A stretch of 64,000 bases of DNA from positions 124,001 to 188,000 of the forward strand of contig NZ_VIRS01000010.1 of NCBI RefSeq assembly GCF_006912135.1, written 5' to 3'. The notes below the pieces were generated by a model that worked only from the letters and a program-made list of their open reading frames with translations, ran no database searches and was not told the DNA's origin. Numbering within the stretch: position 1 is the first letter of the stretch; each line of letters starts with the position of its first letter. The stretch comes from Cryptosporangium phraense (lineage in GTDB: Bacteria > Actinomycetota > Actinomycetes > Mycobacteriales > Cryptosporangiaceae). Below, one piece after another: positions 7,077-39,146 of this stretch. The translations under genes and the position numbers were made by a program.

Positions 7077-7469
7077 ATGACCGGTCCTCTGCGGGCCTGC
7101 CTGCGCCAGCACCTGCGGCCCACCGCGGACGCCGGGGCCGAGGCCCGTCACCTGGTGCAGGACGCCTGCGTGGCCTGGCACCTGCCGGACGTCAGCGCGG
7201 CCGCGGCCGTGGTCGTCACCGAGCTGGTCGACAACGCGGCCCGGCACGCGGGCACCGACCTGATCGTGACGATCGCCTATCGCGGTGCGTACCTGCACCT
7301 GTCGGTGGAGGACCGATCGCCGGACCTGCCTCGCCTGGGCCGGGGGTCCCCGGGGTTCGCGGCCGACCGGGGGCGGGGCCTGCTGCTGGTGGACTCGTTC
7401 GCCTGCGGGTGGGGCGTGGTGACCGCGCCGGACGGCAAGACGGTCTGGGCGAGTCTGTCGGCCCGCTGA
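7077..7469 (+). CDS. RsbW-like anti-sigma HATPase
   Basis: This 130-aa GHKL ATPase has TELVDNAARHAG (N box), 'VEDRSPDLPRL' and GRGLLLVDSFACGWGV. It is colinear with the second half of the protein at 4813 and shares a 60-bp stretch of identical DNA with it (7198-7257 against 5273-5332). The known role of the family is to bind a sigma factor or a STAS partner and phosphorylate the latter; here the adjacent STAS protein has no serine, so binding alone may be the switch. The ATG at 7077 is chosen at the domain boundary; ribosome-binding sequence is weak. Confidence 0.8.
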   Translation: MTGPLRACLRQHLRPTADAGAEARHLVQDACVAWHLPDVSAAAAVVVTELVDNAARHAGTDLIVTIAYRGAYLHLSVEDRSPDLPRLGRGSPGFAADRGRGLLLVDSFACGWGVVTAPDGKTVWASLSAR

Positions 7470-7470
7470 G

Positions 7471-9744
7471 TCAGTCTTCCTTCGGTGGCGCGAAGCGCCG
7501 TTCGAGGTCGGCGGCCGGCATCGGGCACCCGAACAGGTAGCCCTGGCCGAGGCGGTAGCCGGCCCGGCGGAGCCAGGCCGCCTGCACCCGGGTCTCGATG
7601 CCTTCGGCCACGGCCTCGATGCCGAAGTCGTTGACGAACCCGATCAGGTTCCGGGTGATGATCGCGCCCGCTCCGTCCGCGGTCGGTCCGCTCACGAAGG
7701 ACTTGTCGACCTTGAGGACGTCGACCGGGCAGTCGATGAGCAGGCTGAGCGACGAGTGCCCGGTGCCGAAGTCGTCCAGCGCGACCTTGAGGCCCAGCTT
7801 CCGGAGCGCGGTCAGCTGCGGGATCGCCACGTCGGTGCTGAACACCGCGGTCTCGGTGACCTCGAGAACGAGCGCCCGCGCGTCCACCGTGGTCTCCCGG
7901 ACGACCTTCTCGACCCGCTCGACGAAGTCCGGCTGGGCCAGCTGCCGGGCCGACACGTTGATGCTGATCTTGGTCGGGGCGCGGTCGCCGTAGCGGACCT
8001 GCCAGGCGGCGGCGTGCCGGCAGGCGTGCTCGAGCACCCAGTAGCCGAGCTCGACGATCACCCCGTTGCGCTCGGCCAGCGGCACGAAGACGTCCGGGGA
8101 GACCAGCCCGCGCTCCGGGTGCTGCCAGCGCACGAGCACCTCGGCGCCGACCGTCGCCTCGGTCCGCAGGTCGACGATCGGCTGGAACAGCACGAGCATC
8201 TCCTCCTGGGCCAGCGCGCGGCGCAGGTCGGCGGACAGGTGGGCGGTCTCGTCGGCGGCCCGGTCGAGCGCCGGGTCGAACCAGTGCCGACGGCCGCCGC
8301 CCGCGGCCTTGGCCGCGTACATGGCGACGTCGGCGCGGCGCAGCAGCTCGGGCGGGTCGTCGCCGGTGCGGCTGGTCGCGAGGCCGATGCTGGTGCCGCT
8401 CAGCACGGTCTGCTCGGCGACCTCGACCGGTTCGCGCGTCGCCGCCAGCACCCGCGCGACCAGCGCCTCGACGTCCGGGGCGCCGTCGGCGTCCTCGGGC
8501 ACGGCGATCGCGAACTCGTCTCCGCCGAGCCGGGCGACCAGGCCGTGCCCGCCGACGACGTCGGTCAGCCGGGTGCTGAGCACGGTCAGCAGCGCGTCGC
8601 CGACGCTGTGCCCGAGCCGGTCGTTGACGGTCTTGAAGTCGTCGACGTCGAGCAGGACCAGGTGGAACCGGCGCTGCGCGGCCAGCAGCCCGTCGAGGTG
8701 ACGCTCGAGCAGGGCGCGGTTGGCGATCCCGGTGAGCCCGTCGTGGGTGGCCTGGTACTCGACGGTGGCCAGCAGCCGGTTGTTGTCGCGGAGCGCGAGC
8801 ACCTGGCGGGCGACCACGACCAGGGTAAGCGTCACGGTGACGACCTGCATGATCGTCGTCTCGACCGGGTCGGTGGTGCCGGTGGCCAGCAGCACCGCGG
8901 CGGCGGCGGCGACGGCCAGGTAGGGGAGCAGGCTGACGCGGGGGGAGGGCCGCCGCGGGGCCGCCGCGAGCGGATCCGCCTGTCTTTGACGCACGGCGGC
9001 GAGGTGGATGCCGAACGCGGCCACCGGGGCCGCCACCATGCTGGTCGACAGGTAGGGCCGGGAGATCAGCAGCGGGGCCAGCGCGCCGACCACCGCGCTG
9101 ATCGCGGTGCCGGCGGCCAGCGCGTGCAGGGCCCGCCGGTCGAGGCAGCCCGCGCCCGCGAACGCCACCTTGACGAACGTCGCCACCGACAGCCAGGTGA
9201 GCACGAGGATCGCCAGCATCGCGCCGCCGGAGCCGGTCTCGGTCGCCCAGTCGTCGTGGTTGCGGATCGAGAAGTGCCAGACCAGCGCGGCCACCGTGAC
9301 CAGCACCATGCAGGCGTCGAGGCCGAACCGGATCCAGTCGGCCCGGGTCCGCTGCCAGGGCGGCAGCCGCAGCAGCGCCCACAGGGCCAGCCCGAGCACG
9401 GCCAGGTAGAGCGCGAGCGTGATCGGCCCGAGGCGCTGTGAGGGGGTGCCGGACCCGAGCGCGTCGACGGCGTTGGACAGCGTCGCGGCCGTGAACAGCC
9501 CGCAGGCGAGCGTGAGCTGACGCCAGAACCGCCTGGTCGCGGCGTCGAGCGTGGGGTGATCGGCGAGTCGCCAGCAGGCGTAGCCGGCGAGCAGCGTGGT
9601 GACCGGGAGTGCGATCCAGCCGGCCAGGGGCCGCGTCCAGACGTGGAACAGCCCGGTCGTCACCCAGGCCACGTTGACCGCGACGAGCACGCCGGCCGCG
9701 CGCAGCGGCCAGCGCCCGTCGGGCGGATGCTCCACGTCGGGCAC
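7471..9744 (-). CDS. Membrane GGDEF-EAL protein (c-di-GMP turnover)
   Basis: The first 300 or so residues of this 757-aa protein hold about nine membrane helices and form a MASE-like sensor. A GGDEF domain follows (motif LGGDEF near residue 407), without an RxxD inhibitory site five residues upstream. The EAL domain has its signature as EVL (about residue 535, AEVLVRWQHP), then INVSARQ, LEVTET, DDFGTG and KVDKSFV, so the metal and loop-6 residues are kept. It could make, break or only bind c-di-GMP. The GTG start is preceded by GAGGAGGGG. Its stop is 1 nt from that of the convergent HATPase gene. Confidence 0.88.
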   Translation of the reverse strand: MPDVEHPPDGRWPLRAAGVLVAVNVAWVTTGLFHVWTRPLAGWIALPVTTLLAGYACWRLADHPTLDAATRRFWRQLTLACGLFTAATLSNAVDALGSGTPSQRLGPITLALYLAVLGLALWALLRLPPWQRTRADWIRFGLDACMVLVTVAALVWHFSIRNHDDWATETGSGGAMLAILVLTWLSVATFVKVAFAGAGCLDRRALHALAAGTAISAVVGALAPLLISRPYLSTSMVAAPVAAFGIHLAAVRQRQADPLAAAPRRPSPRVSLLPYLAVAAAAAVLLATGTTDPVETTIMQVVTVTLTLVVVARQVLALRDNNRLLATVEYQATHDGLTGIANRALLERHLDGLLAAQRRFHLVLLDVDDFKTVNDRLGHSVGDALLTVLSTRLTDVVGGHGLVARLGGDEFAIAVPEDADGAPDVEALVARVLAATREPVEVAEQTVLSGTSIGLATSRTGDDPPELLRRADVAMYAAKAAGGGRRHWFDPALDRAADETAHLSADLRRALAQEEMLVLFQPIVDLRTEATVGAEVLVRWQHPERGLVSPDVFVPLAERNGVIVELGYWVLEHACRHAAAWQVRYGDRAPTKISINVSARQLAQPDFVERVEKVVRETTVDARALVLEVTETAVFSTDVAIPQLTALRKLGLKVALDDFGTGHSSLSLLIDCPVDVLKVDKSFVSGPTADGAGAIITRNLIGFVNDFGIEAVAEGIETRVQAAWLRRAGYRLGQGYLFGCPMPAADLERRFAPPKED

Positions 9745-28400: not shown

Positions 28401-29981
28401 TCAGGACGGGCGGCGGCGGCTGACGTGCGACTTCTCGACGTCCAGGTCGGCCTGGATCTGACGCAGGACGTCGTCGTCGATCTCGTTCTCGTCGCGGAGC
28501 CGGACGATCATCGCGTGCTTCTCGGCCACCAGCGCCAGCCGCAGGTCGACGTACTGGGCCTGGGCGTCCGAGGCGGAGCGGTCGTCGGCGTCGTCGGTCT
28601 GGCCGGCCCGCAGGGCCCGCAGGTGGCGGTCGTATTCCGTGCGGACCTCGTCGACGACCGCATCCGACGTGTGCAGACGGGCCACCACCTGCGGAAACGC
28701 ATCCAAGGCGGCCTGTACCGCGGCGATCTCGGCCCGGCGGAGCTCGCCGGCGCCGTCCGGGGTCAGCCCCGACCAGCGGACGACGCCGGGCAGCAGCGGC
28801 GCCTGCACGAGCAGCGTCACCGCGATCACCCCGGCGGTGGCGAACACGATCAGATCCCGGTCGGGGAACGGCGAGCCGTTGGTGAGCGTCTCCGGGACGG
28901 CCAGCGCCGCGGCCAGCGACACCGCGCCCCGGAAGCCGGCGGCGGCCAGGACGGTCCGCGGGCGGGCGGTCATCCGCAGCCGGCGCTGCTTCGGCCGGTG
29001 GTCGAGCAGCCGGATCACGTACGGGCTGGTGAAGAAGAACGCGAACCGGGCCAGCACCACGGCCGCCGACACGGCCAGCACCGCGATCAGCCCCCGGGCC
29101 AGCCCGGTGCTGGTCAGGCCGCTCACCGCGCCGTGGATCTCGATGCCGATCAGCACGAACAGCGCACCGTTGAGCAGCGAGGTCACGAACGTCATCACGG
29201 TGTGCACGTGCTCCCGGGCGTCGGCCGGGAACGAGCGGGGAGAGACCTGGCTGACCCACAGGCCACTGACGACGACGGCCAGCACGCCGGAGGCGTGCAC
29301 CTGCTCGGCCAGCAGGTACGCCCCCAGGGGCGTGACGAGGGCCAGCAGGTTGTGCTGGGCCGGATCGCGCAGACGGCGGCGGACCAGCAGGCTGACCCAG
29401 GTCACCAGCGCACCGACGGCGATGCCGCCGCCGTAGGCGAGGCCGAACATCTCGCCGAGCCGGGGGACGCTGAAGTGCTCCTCGCCGACCGTCACCGCGA
29501 CCGCGAGCGCGTAGATGACCAGCGCGGTGCCGTCGTTGACCAGGCTCTCGGCCCGCATCATCGTCGCAACCCGCCGGGGCAGCCCGCGGCCGAGGACGCC
29601 GACCGCGGTCGCGTCGGTCGGGGCGACGGCGGCGCCGAGCACCCAGGCCGGGCCCCAGGGCACGCCGAACAGGTGGGCGGTCACCGCGACCAGGGCCGCG
29701 GTCGCGGCGACCAGCACCGTGCTGGTCAGCACGATGATCCGCTGGTTGACCCGGATCTCGCGGAGCGAGGAGGTGAACGCCTCCCAGTACAGCAGCACCG
29801 GCAGGAACAGCAGCAGGACGACGTCCGGCGGCAGCTCGATCTCGCGCAGCGGAGGCAGGAAACCGAGCAGCACCCCGCCGACGAGCAGCACGGCGGGCGG
29901 GGCCACCCGGATCCGGCGGGCCACGTAGTTGCAGACCAGGATCGCCAGGCCGACCGCGACGAGAAGCTCCAGGGCAGTCAT
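28401..29981 (-). CDS. Na+/H+ antiporter, CPA1 family
   Basis: The 526-aa protein has about twelve membrane helices (1-410) and a charged cytoplasmic tail. The CPA1 ion-binding motif is visible as ESLVNDGTALV, with the earlier 'AVAPTDATAVGVLGRGLP' on the unwound helix. It should exchange Na+ or K+ for protons and regulate cytoplasmic pH. It starts only 19 nt after the allophanate hydrolase stop and may be co-transcribed with the guanidine/urea operon, whose activity releases ammonia. Confidence 0.9.
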   Translation of the reverse strand: MTALELLVAVGLAILVCNYVARRIRVAPPAVLLVGGVLLGFLPPLREIELPPDVVLLLFLPVLLYWEAFTSSLREIRVNQRIIVLTSTVLVAATAALVAVTAHLFGVPWGPAWVLGAAVAPTDATAVGVLGRGLPRRVATMMRAESLVNDGTALVIYALAVAVTVGEEHFSVPRLGEMFGLAYGGGIAVGALVTWVSLLVRRRLRDPAQHNLLALVTPLGAYLLAEQVHASGVLAVVVSGLWVSQVSPRSFPADAREHVHTVMTFVTSLLNGALFVLIGIEIHGAVSGLTSTGLARGLIAVLAVSAAVVLARFAFFFTSPYVIRLLDHRPKQRRLRMTARPRTVLAAAGFRGAVSLAAALAVPETLTNGSPFPDRDLIVFATAGVIAVTLLVQAPLLPGVVRWSGLTPDGAGELRRAEIAAVQAALDAFPQVVARLHTSDAVVDEVRTEYDRHLRALRAGQTDDADDRSASDAQAQYVDLRLALVAEKHAMIVRLRDENEIDDDVLRQIQADLDVEKSHVSRRRPS

Positions 29982-30000: not shown

Positions 30001-31671
30001 TCAGCCGGGGGAGAGCGCCGGGTCGACCGTCCTCGCGGCCAGAGCGGACGGCCAGGACCCGTGCGCGGTGATGTCCTCGGCGGTCTCCGTCGCGATCGCC
30101 TCGGTGAGGAAGCCGCGGACGGTCCGGCCGTCGGCCAGCGTCACCGTGCCGATCGTCATCGGCCGGGGGAGCCCGGCGACGAACGCGCCGAAGCCGGACG
30201 CCGAGAGCCGCCAGACCTCGCCGGCGATCGACGCGCCACCGGCCGCGCGGAGCAGGCCGGGCTTCGGGGGGACCGTGTCCAGCGCGTAGAGCCGGTAGTC
30301 GGGGGTGGTCTCGGCCCGGCCGACGCACGAGCCGCCGGCCGCGACCAGCTCGTGGTTCAGCGGATGACCCGACAGGTGGGCGCCCACGACGAACAGCTCC
30401 ACCGGCGGGTCGGCCAGCAGCTGCGCGAGCGACGCCAGCGTGCGGTCGCTGAACGCCGGTCCGGTGAGCATGACGCCGAACGGCAGCCCGTCTACCACGC
30501 CGGCCGGGACGGCCAGCGAGGCCAGGTCCAGCAGGTTCGCGAAGTTCGTGTAGCGGCCCATCCGGGCGTTCGCGCCGACCGGGTCCTCGGCGACCTGGGC
30601 CAGCGTCGGGTGCCAGGTCGTGGTCGGGGTCAGCAGCGCGGTGGTGCCGGCCAGGGCGGCCCGGCCGGCCGCGCCCAGTTCGTCCAGGCGCTGCTGGTCG
30701 CGGAAGACGTCGGCGGCGGTGAAGCGGGTGCCGCCGAGGATGATGCCGGCGACGGTCGGGTCGAGGTCGGTGCCGATGAGGTGTTGGTGGGCGGTGATGT
30801 GGTCGCCGACTCCGGCGGTCCGTTCGGCGACGAACGCGCCCTCGTAGAGCAGCGCGGCCGCCCGCAGGAGCGGGGTGACGTCCACCTCGACGATCTCGAC
30901 GCCGGCGGCCCGGAACCGGCCGACGACGTCCGCGAACGCCGAGGCCCACCCGTCGGCCAGCCCCTCGAGATGCTCGGCGGTCGGGATCGCGAGCCGATGA
31001 ACTCCCTCGACGGACGACGGCGGGGAGTCCGGGCGGGCCAGCGGGTCCAGGCCGTCCGGGCCGCTGAGCAGCTCGATCGTCCGCCGGGCCAGGCGCAGGT
31101 CCCGGGCGAACACCGTGACGCAGTCCAGGCTCCGGCAGGCCGGGACGACCCCGGTCGTCGGGATCAGGCCCTTCGTGGGCTTCACGCCGACCAGCCCGTT
31201 CAGCGCGGCCGGCACCCGGCCGCTGCCCGCGGTGTCGGTGCCCAGCGCCAGGTCGACCAGCCCCAGTGCGACGGCCACCGCCGACCCCGAGCTCGATCCG
31301 CCGGAGATCCGGGAGGCGTCGAACGCGTTGCGCACCGCCCCGTACGGGCTGCGGGTGCCGACCAGACCGGTCGCGAACTGGTCGAGGTTCGTCACGCCGA
31401 GGATCAGCGCCCCGGCCGCCCGCAGCCGCGCGACCGCGGTCGCGTCCACCGCCGGGGTGTAGGCGTAGGACGGCGCGGCCGCGGTGGTCGGCAGCCCGGC
31501 GACGTCGATGTTGCCCTTGACCGCGGCGAGCAACCCGGCCAGCGGCAGCGACGGATCGATCGTCGCCGCCTCGGCCAGCACCTCGTCCAGCGGACGCAGC
31601 GCGATCCACACCTCCGGACGATCGACCTCGGCGATCCGCGCGTACGCGGCCCGGACTCGATCGCCGATCAC
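30001..31671 (-). CDS. atzF: Allophanate hydrolase
   Basis: This 556-aa amidase-signature enzyme splits allophanate into two ammonia and two CO2. The triad is Lys52 (AAVKGN), cis-Ser127 (SGGSSSGSA) and Ser150 (GTDTAGSGRVPAA). After residue 420 or so comes the C-terminal domain of AtzF/DUR1 proteins (PPVELFVVGAHLSGHPLNHEL, then DYRLYALDTVPPKPGL and 'GEVWRLS'). Its GTG overlaps the carboxylase stop by 4 nt. It is the last enzyme of the four-gene carboxylase operon. Confidence 0.94.
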   Translation of the reverse strand: MIGDRVRAAYARIAEVDRPEVWIALRPLDEVLAEAATIDPSLPLAGLLAAVKGNIDVAGLPTTAAAPSYAYTPAVDATAVARLRAAGALILGVTNLDQFATGLVGTRSPYGAVRNAFDASRISGGSSSGSAVAVALGLVDLALGTDTAGSGRVPAALNGLVGVKPTKGLIPTTGVVPACRSLDCVTVFARDLRLARRTIELLSGPDGLDPLARPDSPPSSVEGVHRLAIPTAEHLEGLADGWASAFADVVGRFRAAGVEIVEVDVTPLLRAAALLYEGAFVAERTAGVGDHITAHQHLIGTDLDPTVAGIILGGTRFTAADVFRDQQRLDELGAAGRAALAGTTALLTPTTTWHPTLAQVAEDPVGANARMGRYTNFANLLDLASLAVPAGVVDGLPFGVMLTGPAFSDRTLASLAQLLADPPVELFVVGAHLSGHPLNHELVAAGGSCVGRAETTPDYRLYALDTVPPKPGLLRAAGGASIAGEVWRLSASGFGAFVAGLPRPMTIGTVTLADGRTVRGFLTEAIATETAEDITAHGSWPSALAARTVDPALSPG

Positions 31672-34600
31672 GCCGCCACCTCCGAGTGCACCCGCACCGC
31701 GAACAGCACCTGACCGGCCGACACCGAGTCACCGGGCGTCACGTAGATGTCCACGACCTCACCGTCCGACGGTGCCATCACCGGCGTCTCCATCTTCATC
31801 GCCTCCAGCGCCAGGATCCGTTCCCCATCGTGGACGACGTCGCCGGGCCGGGCCGAGACCTGCCAGACCGTCGCGCCGAACGGTGCGGTGACCGCGATCG
31901 CCCCCTCCGGAACCGTGACCGGGGCGACCGCCGCCGCCGGAGCCGGTTCCGGCCGCACGTCGAACTCCCCGGACGCGTGCCAGCGCGCCTTCTCGGCCGC
32001 GAACGCCTCCGCTTGCCGGGCCCGGAACCCGGCGATGGAGTCCGCGTGAGCGTCCAGAAAGGCCTGGTGGGAAGCGAGGGAGAACGAGCCGTCGGAGGTC
32101 TCGAACGAGCCCCGGCCGGCGTCGGTCTCGGCCCGCAGGTCGAGCAGTTCCTCGGCCGTCACCGGATACCACTCGATGCGGTCGAAGAACCGCAGCGCCC
32201 AGGGCCGGTCGGTGAACAGGCCGCCGCGCCGGAAGCGGTTCCAGACCTGCACCGTGCGGCCGACGAACTGGTAGCCGCCCGGCCCCTCCATGCCGTAGAT
32301 GCACAGGTAGGCGCCGCCGATGCCGACCGAGTTCTCGGCCGTCCAGGTGCGGGCCGGGTTGTACTTGGTCGTGACCAGCCGGTGCCGGGGGTCCAGCGGC
32401 GTGGCGACCGGCGCGCCCAGGTAGACGTCGCCGAGCCCGAGCACCAGGTACTGCGCGTCGAACACGGTCCGGTACACGTCGTCGACCGAGGACAGGCCGT
32501 TGATCCGGCGGATGAACTCGATGTTCCAGGGCGTCCAGGGCGCGTCGTCGCGGACCCCCGCCATGTACCGCTCGATCGCCAGCCGGGTGGCCGGGTCGTC
32601 CCAGGACAGCGGCAGGCGCACCCGCCGGGACGGCACGACGAGGTCTTCCGGCAGCCCGTCGTCCAGCTCCTGCAGCAGGCCGGTCAACCGGCTCGCGCGC
32701 CCCTCGGTGTGGACCTGGAGCGACCGGATCCCGGGCGTGAGGTCGAGGATCCCTTCCGGCCGGGCCGCCTCCAGCGCGGTCATCAGCGCGTGCACCCGCA
32801 TCCGGAGGCCGAGGTCGAGGACCTGGTCGCCGTACTCGATCAGCAGGTTGTCGTCGCCGTCGCGCCGGTAGGTGACCGACGGCCGGCCCGGCTGCGCCGG
32901 GACCCGCGCCAGAACTCCGTCGTCCCCGTCCCCGGTCGCTCCGACCAGCGTCGGGGCCGCCGCAACCGCTTCGCGGACGCGGACGAAACGGACGGTGTCC
33001 CCGGGGCGCAGCTGGCCGACCTTCCACAGCTCCCCGCTGGCGACGACGGCCGGGCAGACGAATCCGCCCAGGCTGGGACCGTCGGGCCCGAGGATGATCG
33101 GGGTGTCGCCGGTGAAGTCGATCGCGCCCACCGCGTAGGGCGTGTCGTGGATGTTCGACGGGTGCAGACCGGCCTCGCCGCCGTCGCTGCGGGCCCACTC
33201 CGGCCGGGGTCCGAGCAGGCGGACGCCGGTCCGTGCCGAGTTGAGGTGGACCTCGTAGTCGGTGGCGTAGAACGTGTCGAGAGCCGCGCGGGTGAAGAAC
33301 TCGGGCGCCGCGTGCGGGCCCTCGGTGACGCCGATCCGCCAGGTGTGGGTGTAGTCCGGGGGACGGATCCTGGGTTCGGCCGGTCCGGCCGCCAGCGTGC
33401 CGATCCGCAGCACGTCGCCGGCGTTCAGCGCGCGTCCGCCGTGGCCGCCGAAGCCGCCGAGCGTGAACGTCGAGGCGCTGCCCAGGTAGTCCGGGACGTC
33501 GATCCCGCCGCGGACGGCGACGGCCAGGCGCAGCCCCGGCCCGGGAGCGGTTCCGATGGCCAGCACCCCTCCGGCGGGCATCGGAACCGGCTCCCACATC
33601 GGCACCGGTGCGCCGTCGAGCGTCACCGGGGCCGGCGCGCCGGCGACGCAGACGGTCGTCTCCACCGAGAACCGCAGCGTCGGGCCGGTGGCCGTCACCT
33701 CCAGTCCGGGCGCCCCCTCGGGGTTGCCGACGGCCCGGTTCGCGGCCCGCAGCGACACCGGGTCGAACGGCCCCGACGGCGGCACCCCGACCTGCCAATA
33801 CCCGAGCCGGCCGGGCAGGTCCTGCACGGTGGTGAGCGCGCCGGGCTGGAGCACGTCGATCCGGGGCTCGGGGTCGGCGGTGACGTCCAGGGTGGACGTC
33901 GAGTGGGTGGCCGCGCGCAGCGGGGTGCCGTCGGCGAGGGCCCGGAGCAGGCCCAGGTTGGTGACGACCCCGTCGATGCGGGTGCCGCCGAGCGCGCGCG
34001 AGAGCCGGTCGAGGGCCGCGTCGCGGTCGGGTCCGGCGGCGACGATCTTCGCGAGCATCGGGTCGTAGTGCGGCGTCACCTCCAGGCCGGTCTCGATCCA
34101 GCCGTCGACCCGCACGTCGTCCGGGAACTGTGCCCGCGTGACCAGGCCGGTGGAGGGCGCGTTGTTCTTGTCCGGGTCCTCGGCGTACACCCGGGCCTCC
34201 ACCGCGACCCCGGCCGGCTCCCACGTCCGCGCGAAGAGCTCGTCCAGCGCGTCGCCCCGGGCCAGGCGCAGCATCGCGTCCACCAGATCGACGCCGTAGG
34301 CGAGTTCGGTCACCGGGTGCTCGACCTGCAGCCGGGTGTTGACCTCGAGGAACGAGGCCTCCTCCCGGACCGGGTCGTAGACGAACTCGACGGTCCCGGC
34401 CGACCGGTACCGGACGGACGCGGCCAGGGCCGCGGCGCTGTCCGCGATCGACGCGCGGACCGCGTCCGGGAGCGACGGCGCCGGAGCCTCCTCGATCACC
34501 TTCTGGTTGCGCCGCTGGAGCGAGCAGTCGCGGTCGCCGATCACCGCGATCCGCCCGGCCCCGTCGCCGAACAGCTGCACCTCGACGTGGCGGGCCGGTC

Positions 34601-35204
34601 GCACCAGGCGCTCCAGGAACACCCCGGCGCTGCCGAACGCGGCCGCGGCCTGCCGGGCCACCCGGTCGTAGGCCGCGCGCACCTCGGGCAGCGTGGTGCA
34701 GGCCTGCATCCCGATCCCGCCGCCACCTCCGGTGGCCTTCACCATGACCGGCAGCCCGATCGTCTCGGCCGCGGCCACGGCCTCCTCGGCCGACGCCAGC
34801 AGCCCGGTTCCCGCCATCAGGGGGACGCCCGCCCGCGCGGCCAGTTCGCGGGCGGTGTGTTTGCGGCCGAAGACCTCGATCTGCTCCGGGGTCGGGCCGA
34901 CGAACGCGAGCCCGGCGTCCTCGCAGGCCCGGGCGAACGAGACGTTCTCGGAGAGGAAGCCGTAGCCGGGGTGGATCGCGGTCGCGCCGGTCGCCGCGGC
35001 GGCCTCGAGGATCGCGTCGGTGCGCAGGTAGGAGTCGCGCGCCGGGGCCGGGCCGAGCCGGACCGCACGGTCGGCCTCCCGGACGTGCGGGGCGGCCCGG
35101 TCGGCGTCGGAGTAGACCGCGACCGTGCTGAGGCCCAGCGCGTGGGCCGACCGGATGATCCGCCGGGCGATCTCGCCCCGGTTGGCGATCAGCAGCGTGC
35201 TCAC
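31668..35204 (-). CDS. Biotin-dependent urea/guanidine carboxylase
   Basis: This 1178-aa enzyme has a biotin carboxylase part (1-450; IANRGEIARRI, ATP-binding GGGGGIGMQ, EVNTRLQVEHPVTE), a carboxyltransferase part with KipA/KipI-like modules (about 470-1000; TVQDLPGRLGYWQVGVPPSGPFD and later NPARTWTAENSVGIGG), and a biotinyl domain whose Lys1137 lies in EAMKMETPV. It carboxylates urea or guanidine at the expense of ATP. The neighbouring DUF1989 pair favours guanidine. GTG start, 4-nt overlap with the upstream gene. Confidence 0.93.
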   Translation of the reverse strand: MSTLLIANRGEIARRIIRSAHALGLSTVAVYSDADRAAPHVREADRAVRLGPAPARDSYLRTDAILEAAAATGATAIHPGYGFLSENVSFARACEDAGLAFVGPTPEQIEVFGRKHTARELAARAGVPLMAGTGLLASAEEAVAAAETIGLPVMVKATGGGGGIGMQACTTLPEVRAAYDRVARQAAAAFGSAGVFLERLVRPARHVEVQLFGDGAGRIAVIGDRDCSLQRRNQKVIEEAPAPSLPDAVRASIADSAAALAASVRYRSAGTVEFVYDPVREEASFLEVNTRLQVEHPVTELAYGVDLVDAMLRLARGDALDELFARTWEPAGVAVEARVYAEDPDKNNAPSTGLVTRAQFPDDVRVDGWIETGLEVTPHYDPMLAKIVAAGPDRDAALDRLSRALGGTRIDGVVTNLGLLRALADGTPLRAATHSTSTLDVTADPEPRIDVLQPGALTTVQDLPGRLGYWQVGVPPSGPFDPVSLRAANRAVGNPEGAPGLEVTATGPTLRFSVETTVCVAGAPAPVTLDGAPVPMWEPVPMPAGGVLAIGTAPGPGLRLAVAVRGGIDVPDYLGSASTFTLGGFGGHGGRALNAGDVLRIGTLAAGPAEPRIRPPDYTHTWRIGVTEGPHAAPEFFTRAALDTFYATDYEVHLNSARTGVRLLGPRPEWARSDGGEAGLHPSNIHDTPYAVGAIDFTGDTPIILGPDGPSLGGFVCPAVVASGELWKVGQLRPGDTVRFVRVREAVAAAPTLVGATGDGDDGVLARVPAQPGRPSVTYRRDGDDNLLIEYGDQVLDLGLRMRVHALMTALEAARPEGILDLTPGIRSLQVHTEGRASRLTGLLQELDDGLPEDLVVPSRRVRLPLSWDDPATRLAIERYMAGVRDDAPWTPWNIEFIRRINGLSSVDDVYRTVFDAQYLVLGLGDVYLGAPVATPLDPRHRLVTTKYNPARTWTAENSVGIGGAYLCIYGMEGPGGYQFVGRTVQVWNRFRRGGLFTDRPWALRFFDRIEWYPVTAEELLDLRAETDAGRGSFETSDGSFSLASHQAFLDAHADSIAGFRARQAEAFAAEKARWHASGEFDVRPEPAPAAAVAPVTVPEGAIAVTAPFGATVWQVSARPGDVVHDGERILALEAMKMETPVMAPSDGEVVDIYVTPGDSVSAGQVLFAVRVHSEVAA

Positions 35205-35827
35205 GGCGCGGTGACGATCATGCGCAGGGGGGTGGGATCGAAGTCGTTGCACGGGTTGTTCATCTGGGGGCAGTTGCTCACCAGCACGAGCACGTCCACG
35301 TCGGCCCGGATCGCGACCCGCTTGCCGGGCCCGGAGATCCCGTCGACGATGCCCAGCGTGCCGTCGGCCTCGACCGGAACGTTCATGAACCAGTTCAGGT
35401 TCGAGACGACGTCCCGGGCGCCGAGGCCGTGCCGGGCCGCCTCGGCCAGGAAGTTCTCCCGGCAGCCGTGCTGGTGGGCGGTGTGGTGGCCGTACCGGAG
35501 CGTGTTCGACTCCTTGCCGCAGGCCCCGCCGATCGTGTCCTGCCGGGCCACCTCGTTGCCGACCACGGTCATCAGCGGGTTGCCGTACTGGCTGCGCAGC
35601 ACCGTGCCCTCCCGCACGTAGGCGTTGCCCTGCCAGGTCAGCGTGTCCGGGACGCTGTACCGCTCGGTGCGGTCGGCGTCGGCGTAGATCAGGCAGTCGG
35701 CGGACTGGTTGCCGCCGACGTCGACGATCGTCAGCACGTGCCCGGCGGCGACGACGGCCGACCACGGGGCGCGGGGCTCGACGTGGTCGTCGCGGACGAG
35801 TTCTCCGGGGATGAGCGCGCCGGTCAT
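35201..35827 (-). CDS. DUF1989 protein, urea-carboxylase-associated 2 (CgdB/CgdA-type)
   Basis: This 208-aa protein has the DUF1989 fold with GHVLTIVDVGGNQSADCLIY, 'GACGKESNTLRYGHHTAHQHGCRENFL' (a cluster of Cys and His that can bind metal) and NLNWFMNVPVEADG. In Pseudomonas, two such proteins form carboxyguanidine deiminase, which turns carboxyguanidine into allophanate and ammonia. Overlaps of 4 nt on both sides place it in the operon core. Confidence 0.9.
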   Translation of the reverse strand: MTGALIPGELVRDDHVEPRAPWSAVVAAGHVLTIVDVGGNQSADCLIYADADRTERYSVPDTLTWQGNAYVREGTVLRSQYGNPLMTVVGNEVARQDTIGGACGKESNTLRYGHHTAHQHGCRENFLAEAARHGLGARDVVSNLNWFMNVPVEADGTLGIVDGISGPGKRVAIRADVDVLVLVSNCPQMNNPCNDFDPTPLRMIVTAP

Positions 35828-36645
35828 AGTCCTCGGGCCTCCGCGTAGTCGACCGTGTTCAGGTAGGCCCGGTGCGTCTCCGGGGTGGTGGCGTCGTCCG
35901 GGCGGGTCGGCGTCGCTCTCCAGGCGTGCACGCGCAACGGGCCGACCGTGAACGCCGCGCGCGGGTCGAGCGGGTGGGCCGTGTTGGCGATCAGGACGAT
36001 CAGCGGCAGCTCGGCGAGCAGGTCGACCTCGGCCGGTCCGGCGCTGCCGAGCCAGCGGAAGCTCCCGTCCTCCTCGACCCGGACGCCCTGGAAGAACGAG
36101 ACGCTCGGCGGGAGGTCCCGCGGGGTCAGGTCGTGCTTGGCCGCGGCCAGCGTGAACAGTGCCCGTCCGGACGGGCTGGGCCCCTCGGGTGCGGCGTCGC
36201 CGTACTTCCGCTCGTTCCAGGCGTCGGACGACGTCCCGCAGAACGCGTCGTGCCGGGCGGACGTGTCGGCGACGATCGTGGCCAGCACGCGGCCGTCGCC
36301 GGAGAGCAGTGGGTGCCCGGCGCCGAGGTAGGCCTGCCAGGGGATCTTCTGGGTGTCGGCGACGTTGAGCCGTTCCCACGGGGCGACCGCGGAGTGGACG
36401 AGGACGTGCGCGCAGGCGTCGCCGGTGACGTCGGTGAGCCGGATCCGGGTGCCGCGGGCCACGACCTTCGACGTGTAGCCGCCCGGCGCGACGGTCTCGG
36501 CCCAGGTGAGCGTGGTGGGGTCGATGCCCGGCGGGACGAACGGCGAGGTCGAGGCGGGCAGGTAGGGCATCCAGTCCGCGCTCGTGCCGCCCTGGGCGCG
36601 GGCGTCGTCGCGGGCGGCGAACACAGTGGACGTATCGCGGGTCAT
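35824..36645 (-). CDS. DUF1989 protein, urea-carboxylase-associated 1 (CgdA/CgdB-type)
   Basis: The 273-aa partner DUF1989 protein has GTRIRLTDVTGDACAHVLVHSA, 'DTSARHDAFCGTSSDAWNERKYGD' and 'SVSFFQGVRVEEDGSFRW'. As in the partner, a Cys/His set lies in the middle. It is the first gene of the operon and its ATG follows the operator by 12 nt, leaving little leader. It overlaps the second DUF1989 gene by 4 nt, which fits equal production of both subunits. Confidence 0.9.
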   Translation of the reverse strand: MTRDTSTVFAARDDARAQGGTSADWMPYLPASTSPFVPPGIDPTTLTWAETVAPGGYTSKVVARGTRIRLTDVTGDACAHVLVHSAVAPWERLNVADTQKIPWQAYLGAGHPLLSGDGRVLATIVADTSARHDAFCGTSSDAWNERKYGDAAPEGPSPSGRALFTLAAAKHDLTPRDLPPSVSFFQGVRVEEDGSFRWLGSAGPAEVDLLAELPLIVLIANTAHPLDPRAAFTVGPLRVHAWRATPTRPDDATTPETHRAYLNTVDYAEARGL

Positions 36646-36657
36646 GCGGCGCCCCCA

Positions 36658-36687
36658 GGTGATTTCTGTCGACTGACAGAAATCACC
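36658..36687. promoter_or_regulatory. Perfect 13-bp inverted-repeat operator of the carboxylase operon
   Basis: GGTGATTTCTGTC and GACAGAAATCACC form perfect 13-bp arms with the spacer GACT. The repeat ends 12 nt before the start of the first operon gene, so a bound repressor would cover the transcription start region. A degenerate copy with the same spacing lies upstream of the APC permease. The TetR gene lies between the two sites. No ykkC riboswitch sequence is present here. Confidence 0.8.
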
Positions 36688-36796
36688 CTGCGGTCCGGTC
36701 GTTTCGCGGGCGTTTCCCGGTTGCTACGTTCCCGGGCCCGCGGTTGGTGGGTGGGCGCGCGGTTTCGCGGTTCGGCGGGCGCGGGGCGGCGCCGGG

Positions 36797-37465
36797 TCAG
36801 ACGGGGGTGGCCGCTGGGGTGAGGGCGGCCAGCAGGGCCGCGCCGTCGGCGGCGGCGTCGGCGGCGGCCGGGCCGGTGAGGCCGGCGATGCCCAGGCAGG
36901 TGCGGGCGATCTCGTCGGCCAGGCCGGGCCGCGGTGCCAGCGTGGTCACCATCTCGACGACGTGCAGGCACGCGGAGCCCAGGACGTCGGCCCCGGCCGG
37001 GGCGGTGGCTGAGGCGGCTCCGGCCAGCTCCGAGTACGTGGTGAGCAACTGGGCGCGGTGCGCGCGGAACGACGCGAAAGCGGGCGCCGTCCGCACTTCC
37101 GGAGCCATGTAGAGCGTGGCCACTCCCAGCGGCCCGGCCTGCAGCGTGCCGACGTCCCGGACCGCCAGCGCGTACAGCGCCCCCGCCGCCGACGGAGCCG
37201 CGGCCCGGATCGCGTCGACCAGGTCGAGCGTCGGACGCACCGAGGCCTCGAGCAGCTCCAGCAGGATCTCGTCCTTGCCCGGGAAGTAGTAGTACAGCGA
37301 GGCCTGCCGGACGCCGACCCGCTCGGCGATCGCCCGGGTGGACGTCGCCGCGAACCCGGACTCGCCGAACAGCGCCGCGGCCGCGTCGAGGATTTCCTGC
37401 CGGGGCGTCCGGCCGGAGTCCTGGGACCCGCGCGCCCGCGGACGCCCGGCGCGGTTGGTACTCAC
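36797..37465 (-). CDS. TetR family regulator of the carboxylase/permease genes
   Basis: This 222-aa repressor has an N-terminal helix-turn-helix (about 22-70; ILDAAAALFGESGFAATSTRAIAERVGVRQASLYYYFPGKDEIL split over the usual three helices) and a helical ligand domain. It lies between the carboxylase operon and the divergent permease, and each target carries a 24-30 bp dyad near its start. The ligand may be guanidine, urea or a product; this is inference. GTG start. Confidence 0.88.
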   Translation of the reverse strand: MSTNRAGRPRARGSQDSGRTPRQEILDAAAALFGESGFAATSTRAIAERVGVRQASLYYYFPGKDEILLELLEASVRPTLDLVDAIRAAAPSAAGALYALAVRDVGTLQAGPLGVATLYMAPEVRTAPAFASFRAHRAQLLTTYSELAGAASATAPAGADVLGSACLHVVEMVTTLAPRPGLADEIARTCLGIAGLTGPAAADAAADGAALLAALTPAATPV

Positions 37466-37554
37466 AGGGGGAATGCTGCCACGGGCCCCCGGTCATCGGG
37501 ATTTAACCGGCCGGGGACGTCGCGTGGAACACACCCGCCCCACGCTCAGGGCCA

Positions 37555-37578
37555 AATACCTGTCGCCCGACAGAAATC
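37555..37578. promoter_or_regulatory. Second copy of the TetR-type operator, upstream of the permease
   Basis: The left arm AATACCTGTC and the right arm GACAGAAATC flank a 4-nt spacer (GCCC). The right arm is identical to ten bases of the site at 36658 and the left arm matches at seven of ten. It ends 17 nt before the permease start, almost the same distance as the first site from its gene. Confidence 0.68.
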
Positions 37579-37595
37579 GGCCCGGAGGTGGAGTC

Positions 37596-39146
37596 GTGAG
37601 CACTACCACGACGACGAGAAGCTCGACCGGCTACGAGCAGGAGCTGCACCGGGGAGTCGGCACGTTCGCGTCGTTCGCCGCCGGCTTCTCGTTCGTCTCG
37701 ATCCTGACCACGGTGTTCCAGCTGTTCGGCCTGGGCTTCCTGCTCGGTGGCGCGTCGTTCTTCTGGGCCTGGCCGGCGGTGTTCGTCGGCCAGTTGTTCG
37801 TCGCGCTGTGCTTCGCCGAGCTGGCCGGGCGATGGCCGGTGTCGGGCGCGATCTTCCAGTGGTCGAGCCGGTTGGCCGGTACGTCCTGGGGCTGGTTCAC
37901 CGGCTGGATCATGATCGTCGGACAGATCCTGACCGTGGCCGTCGCCGCGATCGCGATCCAGGCCGTGCTGCCGGCCATCTGGTCGGGCTTCCAGCTGGTG
38001 GGCGGCTCGGACGCCGACCCGTCGATCCTGTCGGAGACCGGCGCGAAGAACGCGGTCGTGCTCGGCATCATCCTGCTGGCGATCACGACGCTGGTGAACA
38101 TCCTCGGGATCCGGCAGATGGCCGCGACGACCAGCGTCGGCGTCGCGGTCGAGATCGTCGGGGTGGTGATCCTGATCGGAGTGTTGTTCGCGCTGTCCGA
38201 GCGTGGCCCGTCGGTGGTGCTGCACACCACCGGCTGGGAGGGGACCGGCAACTACTTCTTCGCCTGGCTGGCGTCGTCGCTGATGGCCGCGTACGTGATG
38301 GTCGGGTTCGACTCGGCCGGCGAGCTGGCCGAGGAGACCCACTCGCCGCGCAAGACGACCCCGAAGACGATCATCCGGGCGTTGACCACGTCGGGCCTGG
38401 GCGGCGGGCTGCTGATCCTGGGCGCGCTGATGGCCGCGCCGAGCCTCACCGACGGCAACCTGTCGTCGCTCGGCCTGTCGTGGGTGATCACCGAGCGGCT
38501 CGGCGACGTGTTCGGCCGCCTGCTGCTGTGCTGCGTCGCGGTCGCGGTCTTCGCCTGCACGCTCGCGGTGCAGACGTCCGGCGCCCGGATGACGTACTCG
38601 ATGGCCCGCGAGGGCGCGCTGCCGTTCTCGAAGGCGCTGGCCCGGGTCTCACCCCGCACCGGCACGCCGGTGATCACGTCGATCGTGGTCGGCGTGGGCG
38701 CGGCCGTGGCGCTCGCGGTCAACGTCAACTCGACGACGATCTTCACCGCGCTCTCCAGCATCTGCATCGCGATGCTCTACATCGCCTATCTCGGCGTCAC
38801 GCTGCCGCTGCTCGTCGTCCGGATCAAGCACCGGAACACCGACCACTTCCCGGCCGGCCACGACGAGGACGGCAAGCCGCTGTTCTCGATGGGCCGCTTC
38901 GGCATCCCGGTGAACGTCGCCGCGGTGATCTACCAGGCGATCATGATCGTCAACCTGATGTGGCCGCGGCCGGAGATCTACGACCTGTCCACCGACGGGA
39001 ACTGGCTGCTCCAGTACAGCGCGGTGCTGTTCGTCGGGGCGGTCGTCGCGGTGGGAGCCGCCTACTTCGGCTGGAAGCGACTGCACCACCGCATCGACCT
39101 GCCGCACATCCCGCACACCCACCTGGTGGCGGAGGACGCCGCCTAG
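37596..39146 (+). CDS. APC-superfamily permease, urea-carboxylase-region type
   Basis: This 516-aa permease has about twelve membrane helices and the APC pattern: GTFASFAAGFSFVSILTTVFQLF in helix 1, 'CFAELAGRWPVSGAIFQWSSRLAG' after helix 2 and 'VGFDSAGELAEETHSPRKTTPKTI' before helix 7. Permeases of this type are known next to urea-carboxylase clusters. GTG at 37596 follows GGAGG and places the operator just upstream. It probably imports the nitrogen compound used by the operon. Confidence 0.9.
   Translation: MSTTTTTRSSTGYEQELHRGVGTFASFAAGFSFVSILTTVFQLFGLGFLLGGASFFWAWPAVFVGQLFVALCFAELAGRWPVSGAIFQWSSRLAGTSWGWFTGWIMIVGQILTVAVAAIAIQAVLPAIWSGFQLVGGSDADPSILSETGAKNAVVLGIILLAITTLVNILGIRQMAATTSVGVAVEIVGVVILIGVLFALSERGPSVVLHTTGWEGTGNYFFAWLASSLMAAYVMVGFDSAGELAEETHSPRKTTPKTIIRALTTSGLGGGLLILGALMAAPSLTDGNLSSLGLSWVITERLGDVFGRLLLCCVAVAVFACTLAVQTSGARMTYSMAREGALPFSKALARVSPRTGTPVITSIVVGVGAAVALAVNVNSTTIFTALSSICIAMLYIAYLGVTLPLLVVRIKHRNTDHFPAGHDEDGKPLFSMGRFGIPVNVAAVIYQAIMIVNLMWPRPEIYDLSTDGNWLLQYSAVLFVGAVVAVGAAYFGWKRLHHRIDLPHIPHTHLVAEDAA

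What the first reader, a model, noticed from the sequence alone, without database searches (positions are those of the whole stretch)
30001..39146. Carboxylase cluster reads as guanidine, not urea, catabolism
The operon holds two DUF1989 proteins (UAAP1, UAAP2), the carboxylase and allophanate hydrolase, all with 4-nt overlaps. Established work in Pseudomonas shows that such DUF1989 pairs form carboxyguanidine deiminase (CgdAB), which turns carboxyguanidine into allophanate. The pathway guanidine, carboxyguanidine, allophanate, ammonia then fits all four genes, whereas urea carboxylase would not need DUF1989 proteins. The divergent APC permease is a likely uptake route.
Basis: partly seen in the sequence, partly recalled or inferred. 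Interest (0 to 1): 0.72.

Follow-up and report, generated by a model that had tools for sequence, protein, structure and literature searches.

The report
AmtR-controlled guanidine-degradation gene cluster
A soil-type actinobacterium carries a gene set annotated for urea use that, by its active-site signature and partner genes, almost certainly breaks down guanidine for nitrogen, and it is probably controlled by AmtR, a known regulator whose chemical signal has never been found.

Summary
UAAP1, UAAP2, the biotin carboxylase and allophanate hydrolase sit head to tail on the minus strand with three 4-nt overlaps; an APC permease diverges. The carboxylase has Asp at the position (K. lactis 1330; here D696) that is Asp in guanidine and Asn in urea carboxylases. 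A named counter-example behaves as predicted: a Salmonella plasmid cluster with urea transporter genes and no DUF1989 has Asn, while nine DUF1989-bearing clusters have Asp. The pathway itself is known. The same box precedes the first cluster gene in nearly all relatives tested. This AmtR regulon has been described as urea catabolism; urea and amino acids failed to release AmtR, and no effector is known. The signature says the regulon is for guanidine, so guanidine, carboxyguanidine or allophanate are candidate effectors. No guanidine riboswitch is in the window; the genome has one elsewhere, before an SMR exporter gene. No enzyme activity was shown here.

The parts
35824..36645 (-). UAAP1, DUF1989 protein, predicted carboxyguanidine deiminase subunit without the conserved Cys/His cluster
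   Evidence: TIGR03425 275.8 bits; the C103/H115/H120/C122 cluster of UAAP2 is not kept in UAAP1, C136 varies
35201..35827 (-). UAAP2, DUF1989 protein, predicted catalytic carboxyguanidine deiminase subunit
   Evidence: TIGR03424 308 bits; C103, H115, H120, C122, C186, C193 invariant in 77 sequences; distant match to solved DUF1989 3oru
31668..35204 (-). Biotin-dependent guanidine carboxylase (BC, CT, BCCP domains), annotated as urea carboxylase
   Evidence: TIGR02712 1742.7 bits; K. lactis urea carboxylase 3va7/5i8i best structure matches
33117..33119 (-). Codon GAC for Asp696, the guanidine/urea discriminating position
   Evidence: Aligned to K. lactis N1330; codon
32427..32429 (-). Codon for Asp926, conserved in both carboxylase types
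   Evidence: Equivalent to K. lactis 1584; invariant in 81 sequences
30001..31671 (-). Allophanate hydrolase (amidase plus AH_C domain)
   Evidence: TIGR02713 654 bits, PF21986 150.8 bits; 4gyr/4gys
36797..37465 (-). amtR, TetR-family repressor
   Evidence: Best structures are AmtR of M. smegmatis (5e57, 105.7 bits) and C. glutamicum (5dxz/5dy0/5dy1, about 102 bits); first non-AmtR 48.3 bits; next best homologue in own genome 61 bits
36660..36685 (.). AmtR box 1, TGATTTCTGTC-AGTC-GACAGAAATCA, 14 nt before UAAP1
   Evidence: only perfect TTTCTGTCN4GACAGAAA in the 8.46 Mb genome; unchanged in a same-genus genome while flanks differ
37557..37576 (.). AmtR box 2, TACCTGTCGCCCGACAGAAA, in the amtR/permease divergent promoter region
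36701..36727 (-). Possible GlnR site GTAGC-n6-GAAAC-n6-GAAAC upstream of AmtR box 1
   Evidence: Two 7/8 matches in 11-nt phase; the GGGAAACG and GCGAAACG parts kept in the same-genus genome; weak statistics
37596..39146 (+). APC-family permease, predicted importer
   Evidence: TIGR03428 best match, below cut-off

Best explanation
The cluster is a guanidine-assimilation operon under AmtR. The APC permease imports guanidine (inferred). The biotin carboxylase makes carboxyguanidine at the cost of ATP; the UAAP1/UAAP2 pair (CgdAB) deiminates it to allophanate; allophanate hydrolase releases CO2 and two ammonia (inferred by homology; active-site signature shown). AmtR represses both the enzyme operon and the divergent permease/amtR promoter through two palindromic boxes (sites and conservation shown, binding inferred). 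Derepression may be by a pathway compound and activation under nitrogen starvation by GlnR (both inferred).
For: Asp696 and Asp926 signature (criterion). Asp in 80 of 81 aligned carboxylases from related loci plus window. In the plasmid-collection control Asn occurs only in the cluster without DUF1989. Urease gene elsewhere in the genome, so urea has its own route. The genome also carries a guanidine-III riboswitch (41.2 bits, over cut-off) 15 nt before an SMR gene. AmtR identity. AmtR boxes here match the S. avermitilis consensus TAtCTGTCa-n2-cGACAGATAT (PMC8864220) and precede the permease in 53 of 55 loci, or UAAP1 where it leads. M. smegmatis AmtR binds in front of the same gene set (PMC4222082).
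Against: No activity data. One relative with the whole cluster has Asn at 696 (L083, codon AAC). The permease score is under the family cut-off. AmtR in C. glutamicum is thought to answer to GlnK, not to a small molecule. The 80 loci are biased to close relatives, many from Microbacteriaceae.
Confidence: 0.88

Rival explanations
1. Urea catabolism: the carboxylase acts on urea and the UAAPs are accessory, as the family names and the M. smegmatis AmtR literature say.
For: Names in TIGR02712, TIGR03424/5; the AmtR regulon is called urea metabolism.
Against: Asp, not Asn, at 696. A plasmid cluster with urtABCD and Asn has no UAAPs. Urea did not release M. smegmatis AmtR. The genome has urease.
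Confidence: 0.06
2. The true substrate is a substituted guanidine or another amidine (for example methylguanidine), with guanidine only a side substrate.
For: Guanidine-carboxylase operons can be widened to methylguanidine by extra enzymes (PMC12508155). The permease type differs from the ABC importers of proteobacterial clusters.
Against: No extra enzyme genes lie inside the operon. D696 and neighbouring residues are as in guanidine-type enzymes.
Confidence: 0.06

Closest known systems
Guanidine carboxylase pathway (guanidine carboxylase, CgdAB, AtzF) of Pseudomonas, Raoultella, Vreelandella
   Same: Same four enzymes, same signature residues as the published criterion, similar gene order
   Different: APC permease instead of ABC importer; no guanidine riboswitch found at the operon; AmtR with two operators instead
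AmtR regulon of M. smegmatis and S. avermitilis (permease, urf1, urf2, urea carboxylase, amidase)
   Same: Same regulator family, same box, same gene set; C. michiganensis, one of the ten species in that study, is in my locus set with Asp (L036, L038)
   Different: Described there as putative urea catabolism; here two separate boxes because amtR lies between permease and UAAP1
Urea carboxylase/allophanate hydrolase of yeast (K. lactis urea amidolyase) and of the Salmonella plasmid cluster L136
   Same: Same domain architecture and ATP/biotin chemistry
   Different: Asn instead of Asp at the discriminating position; no DUF1989 in L136, which has urea transporter genes next door
Ammonia-oxidiser guanidine loci with an APC permease (PMC11410670)
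   Same: APC-type permease next to guanidine-degrading genes
   Different: Those are described under guanidine-I riboswitches

Membership tests
Guanidine carboxylase | TIGR02712 over cut-off with BC, CT, BCCP domains | tested here: met
   1742.7 bits against 1303.85; Pfam domains
Guanidine carboxylase | Asp at K. lactis 1330 and Asp at 1584 | tested here: met
   D696, D926
Guanidine carboxylase | Higher catalytic efficiency on guanidine than urea | not testable with these tools
   needs enzyme assay
Urea carboxylase | Asn at K. lactis 1330 | tested here: not met
   Asp696
Carboxyguanidine deiminase CgdAB | Two distinct DUF1989 proteins matching TIGR03424 and TIGR03425, next to the carboxylase | tested here: met
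   308 and 275.8 bits, both over cut-off
Carboxyguanidine deiminase CgdAB | Place in the CgdA/CgdB clades of a DUF1989 tree | not tested
   no tree was built; family models used instead
Allophanate hydrolase AtzF | Amidase plus AH_C domain, TIGR02713 over cut-off | tested here: met
   654 bits against 511; PF21986
AmtR | Closest to characterised AmtR proteins among TetR regulators | tested here: met
   the six best chains, all AmtR of M. smegmatis or C. glutamicum or entries so named, at 90-106 bits, next 48
AmtR | AmtR box in front of target genes | tested here: met
   two boxes, conserved in relatives
AmtR | Binds its box and represses the downstream genes | not testable with these tools
   needs gel shift and expression data
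Guanidine-riboswitch-controlled operon | Guanidine riboswitch known to Rfam at the operon | tested here: not met
   no Rfam match in window, nor at E<=1 around the promoters

The most novel reading that the evidence does not exclude
In actinobacteria outside Corynebacterium, AmtR is a guanidine-pathway sensor: guanidine, carboxyguanidine or allophanate is its missing effector, and it does by protein what guanidine riboswitches do elsewhere, while in this genome a guanidine-III riboswitch handles export.
Probability: 0.35. Interest if true: 0.72.

Novelty: new member of a known kind. Interest (0 to 1): 0.5.

Why it matters
The pathway is known, but the cluster ties two separate literatures together. 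AmtR's local regulon has been read as urea catabolism, and no small molecule that frees AmtR from DNA is known (PMC8864220); urea and amino acids were tried in M. smegmatis and failed (PMC4222082). No paper in the searched open library holds both AmtR and guanidine. If the regulon serves guanidine, the effector question can be tested at once with a gel shift.

Tried and rejected
Riboswitch control of the operon: no Rfam match in the window at gathering score, none at E<=1 in 36500-37700, none in six related loci apart from a tRNA; guanidine-III hits in 17 of 50 related genomes lie at coordinates or contig numbers that do not match the cluster loci; guanidine-I hits were all below gathering score and also elsewhere. 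A third AmtR-box-like site in the genome (C27:89330, 2 mismatches) lies inside a Wzz/chain-length-type ORF, so probably chance. GlnR site: suggestive only, a best score of 7 of 8 or more arises in about 5% of shuffles of the other promoter region. The primary paper on CgdAB (PMC8184117) was not held, so its criterion was taken from PMC11410670. Phmmer of UAAP1 found no solved structure.

Full report
What is there. On the minus strand run amtR (37465-36797), a 151-nt gap, UAAP1, UAAP2, the carboxylase and allophanate hydrolase, the last four joined by three 4-nt overlaps. The APC permease diverges from amtR across 130 nt. Family models agree with every name, with the permease below its curated cut-off. 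The carboxylase is the only full-length member of its family in an 8.46 Mb genome.

Guanidine or urea. The published criterion is Asp for guanidine and not for urea at K. lactis position 1330 (Asn in urea carboxylases), with Asp also required at 1584 (PMC11410670; see also PMC12186494). In the alignment to the solved K. lactis enzyme, N1330 falls on D696, codon GAC at 33117-33119, and 1584 falls on D926. Of 81 aligned carboxylases, 80 have Asp at 696 and all have Asp at 926. The one exception, L083, has a complete cluster but Asn (codon AAC), in a metagenome-assembled genome.

Ten clusters were taken from plasmid-collection records. Nine have UAAP1 and UAAP2 and Asp. The tenth, on a Salmonella plasmid, has atzF, the carboxylase, a GntR gene and urtABCD, no DUF1989 gene, and Asn. 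The two full-length Asn enzymes met in the order-level search also had no DUF1989 within the short flanks held. This is a small sample but goes the predicted way.

DUF1989 pair. UAAP2 keeps C103, H115, H120, C122, C186 and C193 in all 77 sequences, and C103, H115 and C122 line up with a solved DUF1989 protein. UAAP1 lacks that cluster, so UAAP2 is the likely catalytic subunit. This is inference.

The regulator. The TetR protein is AmtR: its six best solved relatives, at 90-106 bits, are AmtR proteins (M. smegmatis 5e57; the C. glutamicum structures 5dxz, 5dy0, 5dy1, attributed to C. glutamicum AmtR from my own knowledge; 5mqq and 6gy3 so named), with 48 bits for the next. A perfect 11-nt inverted repeat, TGATTTCTGTC-AGTC-GACAGAAATCA, lies 14 nt before UAAP1 and a second copy with two changes in the core lies between amtR and the permease. 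In the whole genome the 20-mer pattern occurs perfectly once and with two mismatches twice, one of these inside an unrelated ORF; the reversed control pattern gave none. The reported AmtR consensus of S. avermitilis and others, TAtCTGTCa-n2-cGACAGATAT, is the same motif (PMC8864220). In a same-genus genome with the same arrangement (L124) box 1 is unchanged while the flanks differ.

Relatives. Of 80 loci from named genomes, 76 carry an AmtR-like gene by the cluster. The relaxed box CTRTCN4GAYAG lies within 220 nt upstream of 53 of 55 permease genes, and upstream of UAAP1 in 19 loci, mostly those where UAAP1 leads; only 83 matches occur in 1.69 Mb. With the stricter pattern, 24 sites reach 14 of 16 against none in first-order Markov sequence. 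The box follows whichever gene comes first. The loci are not independent: many are Curtobacterium, Microbacterium and Agreia, and the search kept the best 80 of 164.

What was known. The AmtR link to this gene set in actinobacteria was found in 2013: in M. smegmatis AmtR represses and binds upstream of the permease gene, controls only this small regulon, and GlnR gives the nitrogen response; urea and amino acids up to 5 mM did not release it (PMC4222082). At that time the functions of urf1, urf2, the carboxylase and the amidase were called highly speculative. The carboxyguanidine deiminase work came in 2020 (reference in PMC11410670). I found no paper in the open library that joins AmtR and guanidine; subscription papers, including the 2016 AmtR structure paper and the 2013 S. 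avermitilis paper, were not searchable.

Guanidine elsewhere in the genome. A guanidine-III riboswitch (41.2 bits, gathering score 36) sits 15 nt before an SMR gene on another contig, and urease is present. So this organism has a riboswitch for guanidine export (inferred from the gene family) and AmtR for guanidine use.

Most likely working. Imported guanidine is carboxylated, deiminated to allophanate and hydrolysed, giving three ammonia. AmtR holds both promoters off. A pathway compound is the natural candidate to free it, and a GlnR-like site with two GAAAC halves upstream of box 1 would add nitrogen control (weak). The chemistry is inferred from families and one residue; the operator and its conservation are shown; binding and effector are not.

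A side finding. In order-level relatives a separate clade has a carboxyltransferase-only protein with Met at the 696 position (IMLSGD for IDFTGD) beside DUF1989 and, in most, allophanate hydrolase genes, in eight genomes; another has carboxyltransferase-only proteins with Asp. In the five such loci held with about 9 kb flanks (L126-L130) no biotin carboxylase or biotin carrier domain was found. Their substrate is open.

Noticed in passing
L128, L129, L130, L141-L148, L169: A clade of carboxyltransferase-only homologues with Met at the guanidine/urea discriminating position (HPSN.HDSAYPVGGIMLSGDTP), beside DUF1989 and mostly allophanate hydrolase and APC permease genes but without biotin carboxylase or biotin carrier domain nearby. 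A possible third substrate class or a subunit that uses a carboxylase in trans.
   Followed up: partly
L126, L127, L149, L150, L152-L154, L157, L170: Carboxyltransferase-only proteins with Asp at the same position next to UAAP1/UAAP2, in L126 and L127 also near an AmtR-like gene; no biotin carboxylase domain within about 9 kb in L126/L127.
   Followed up: partly
L010:1501-1566 (G000:C27:34376-34441): Guanidine-III riboswitch directly before an SMR exporter gene in the same genome as the window.
   Followed up: partly
L083:10001-13600: Only relative with the full AmtR/UAAP cluster but Asn (AAC) at the discriminating position; a natural switch or a sequence error.
   Followed up: no
L048, L052-L055, L067, L089 at about 7360-7580: Extra AmtR-box-like site (mostly TTTCTGTTGCTTGACAGAAA) beyond the 3' end of the divergent amtR in Microbacterium, near genes not identified here; possible further AmtR target.
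   Followed up: no
window 28401-29981: Na+/H+ antiporter gene (TIGR00831, 364 bits) starting about 20 nt after allophanate hydrolase on the same strand; may be co-transcribed.
   Followed up: no
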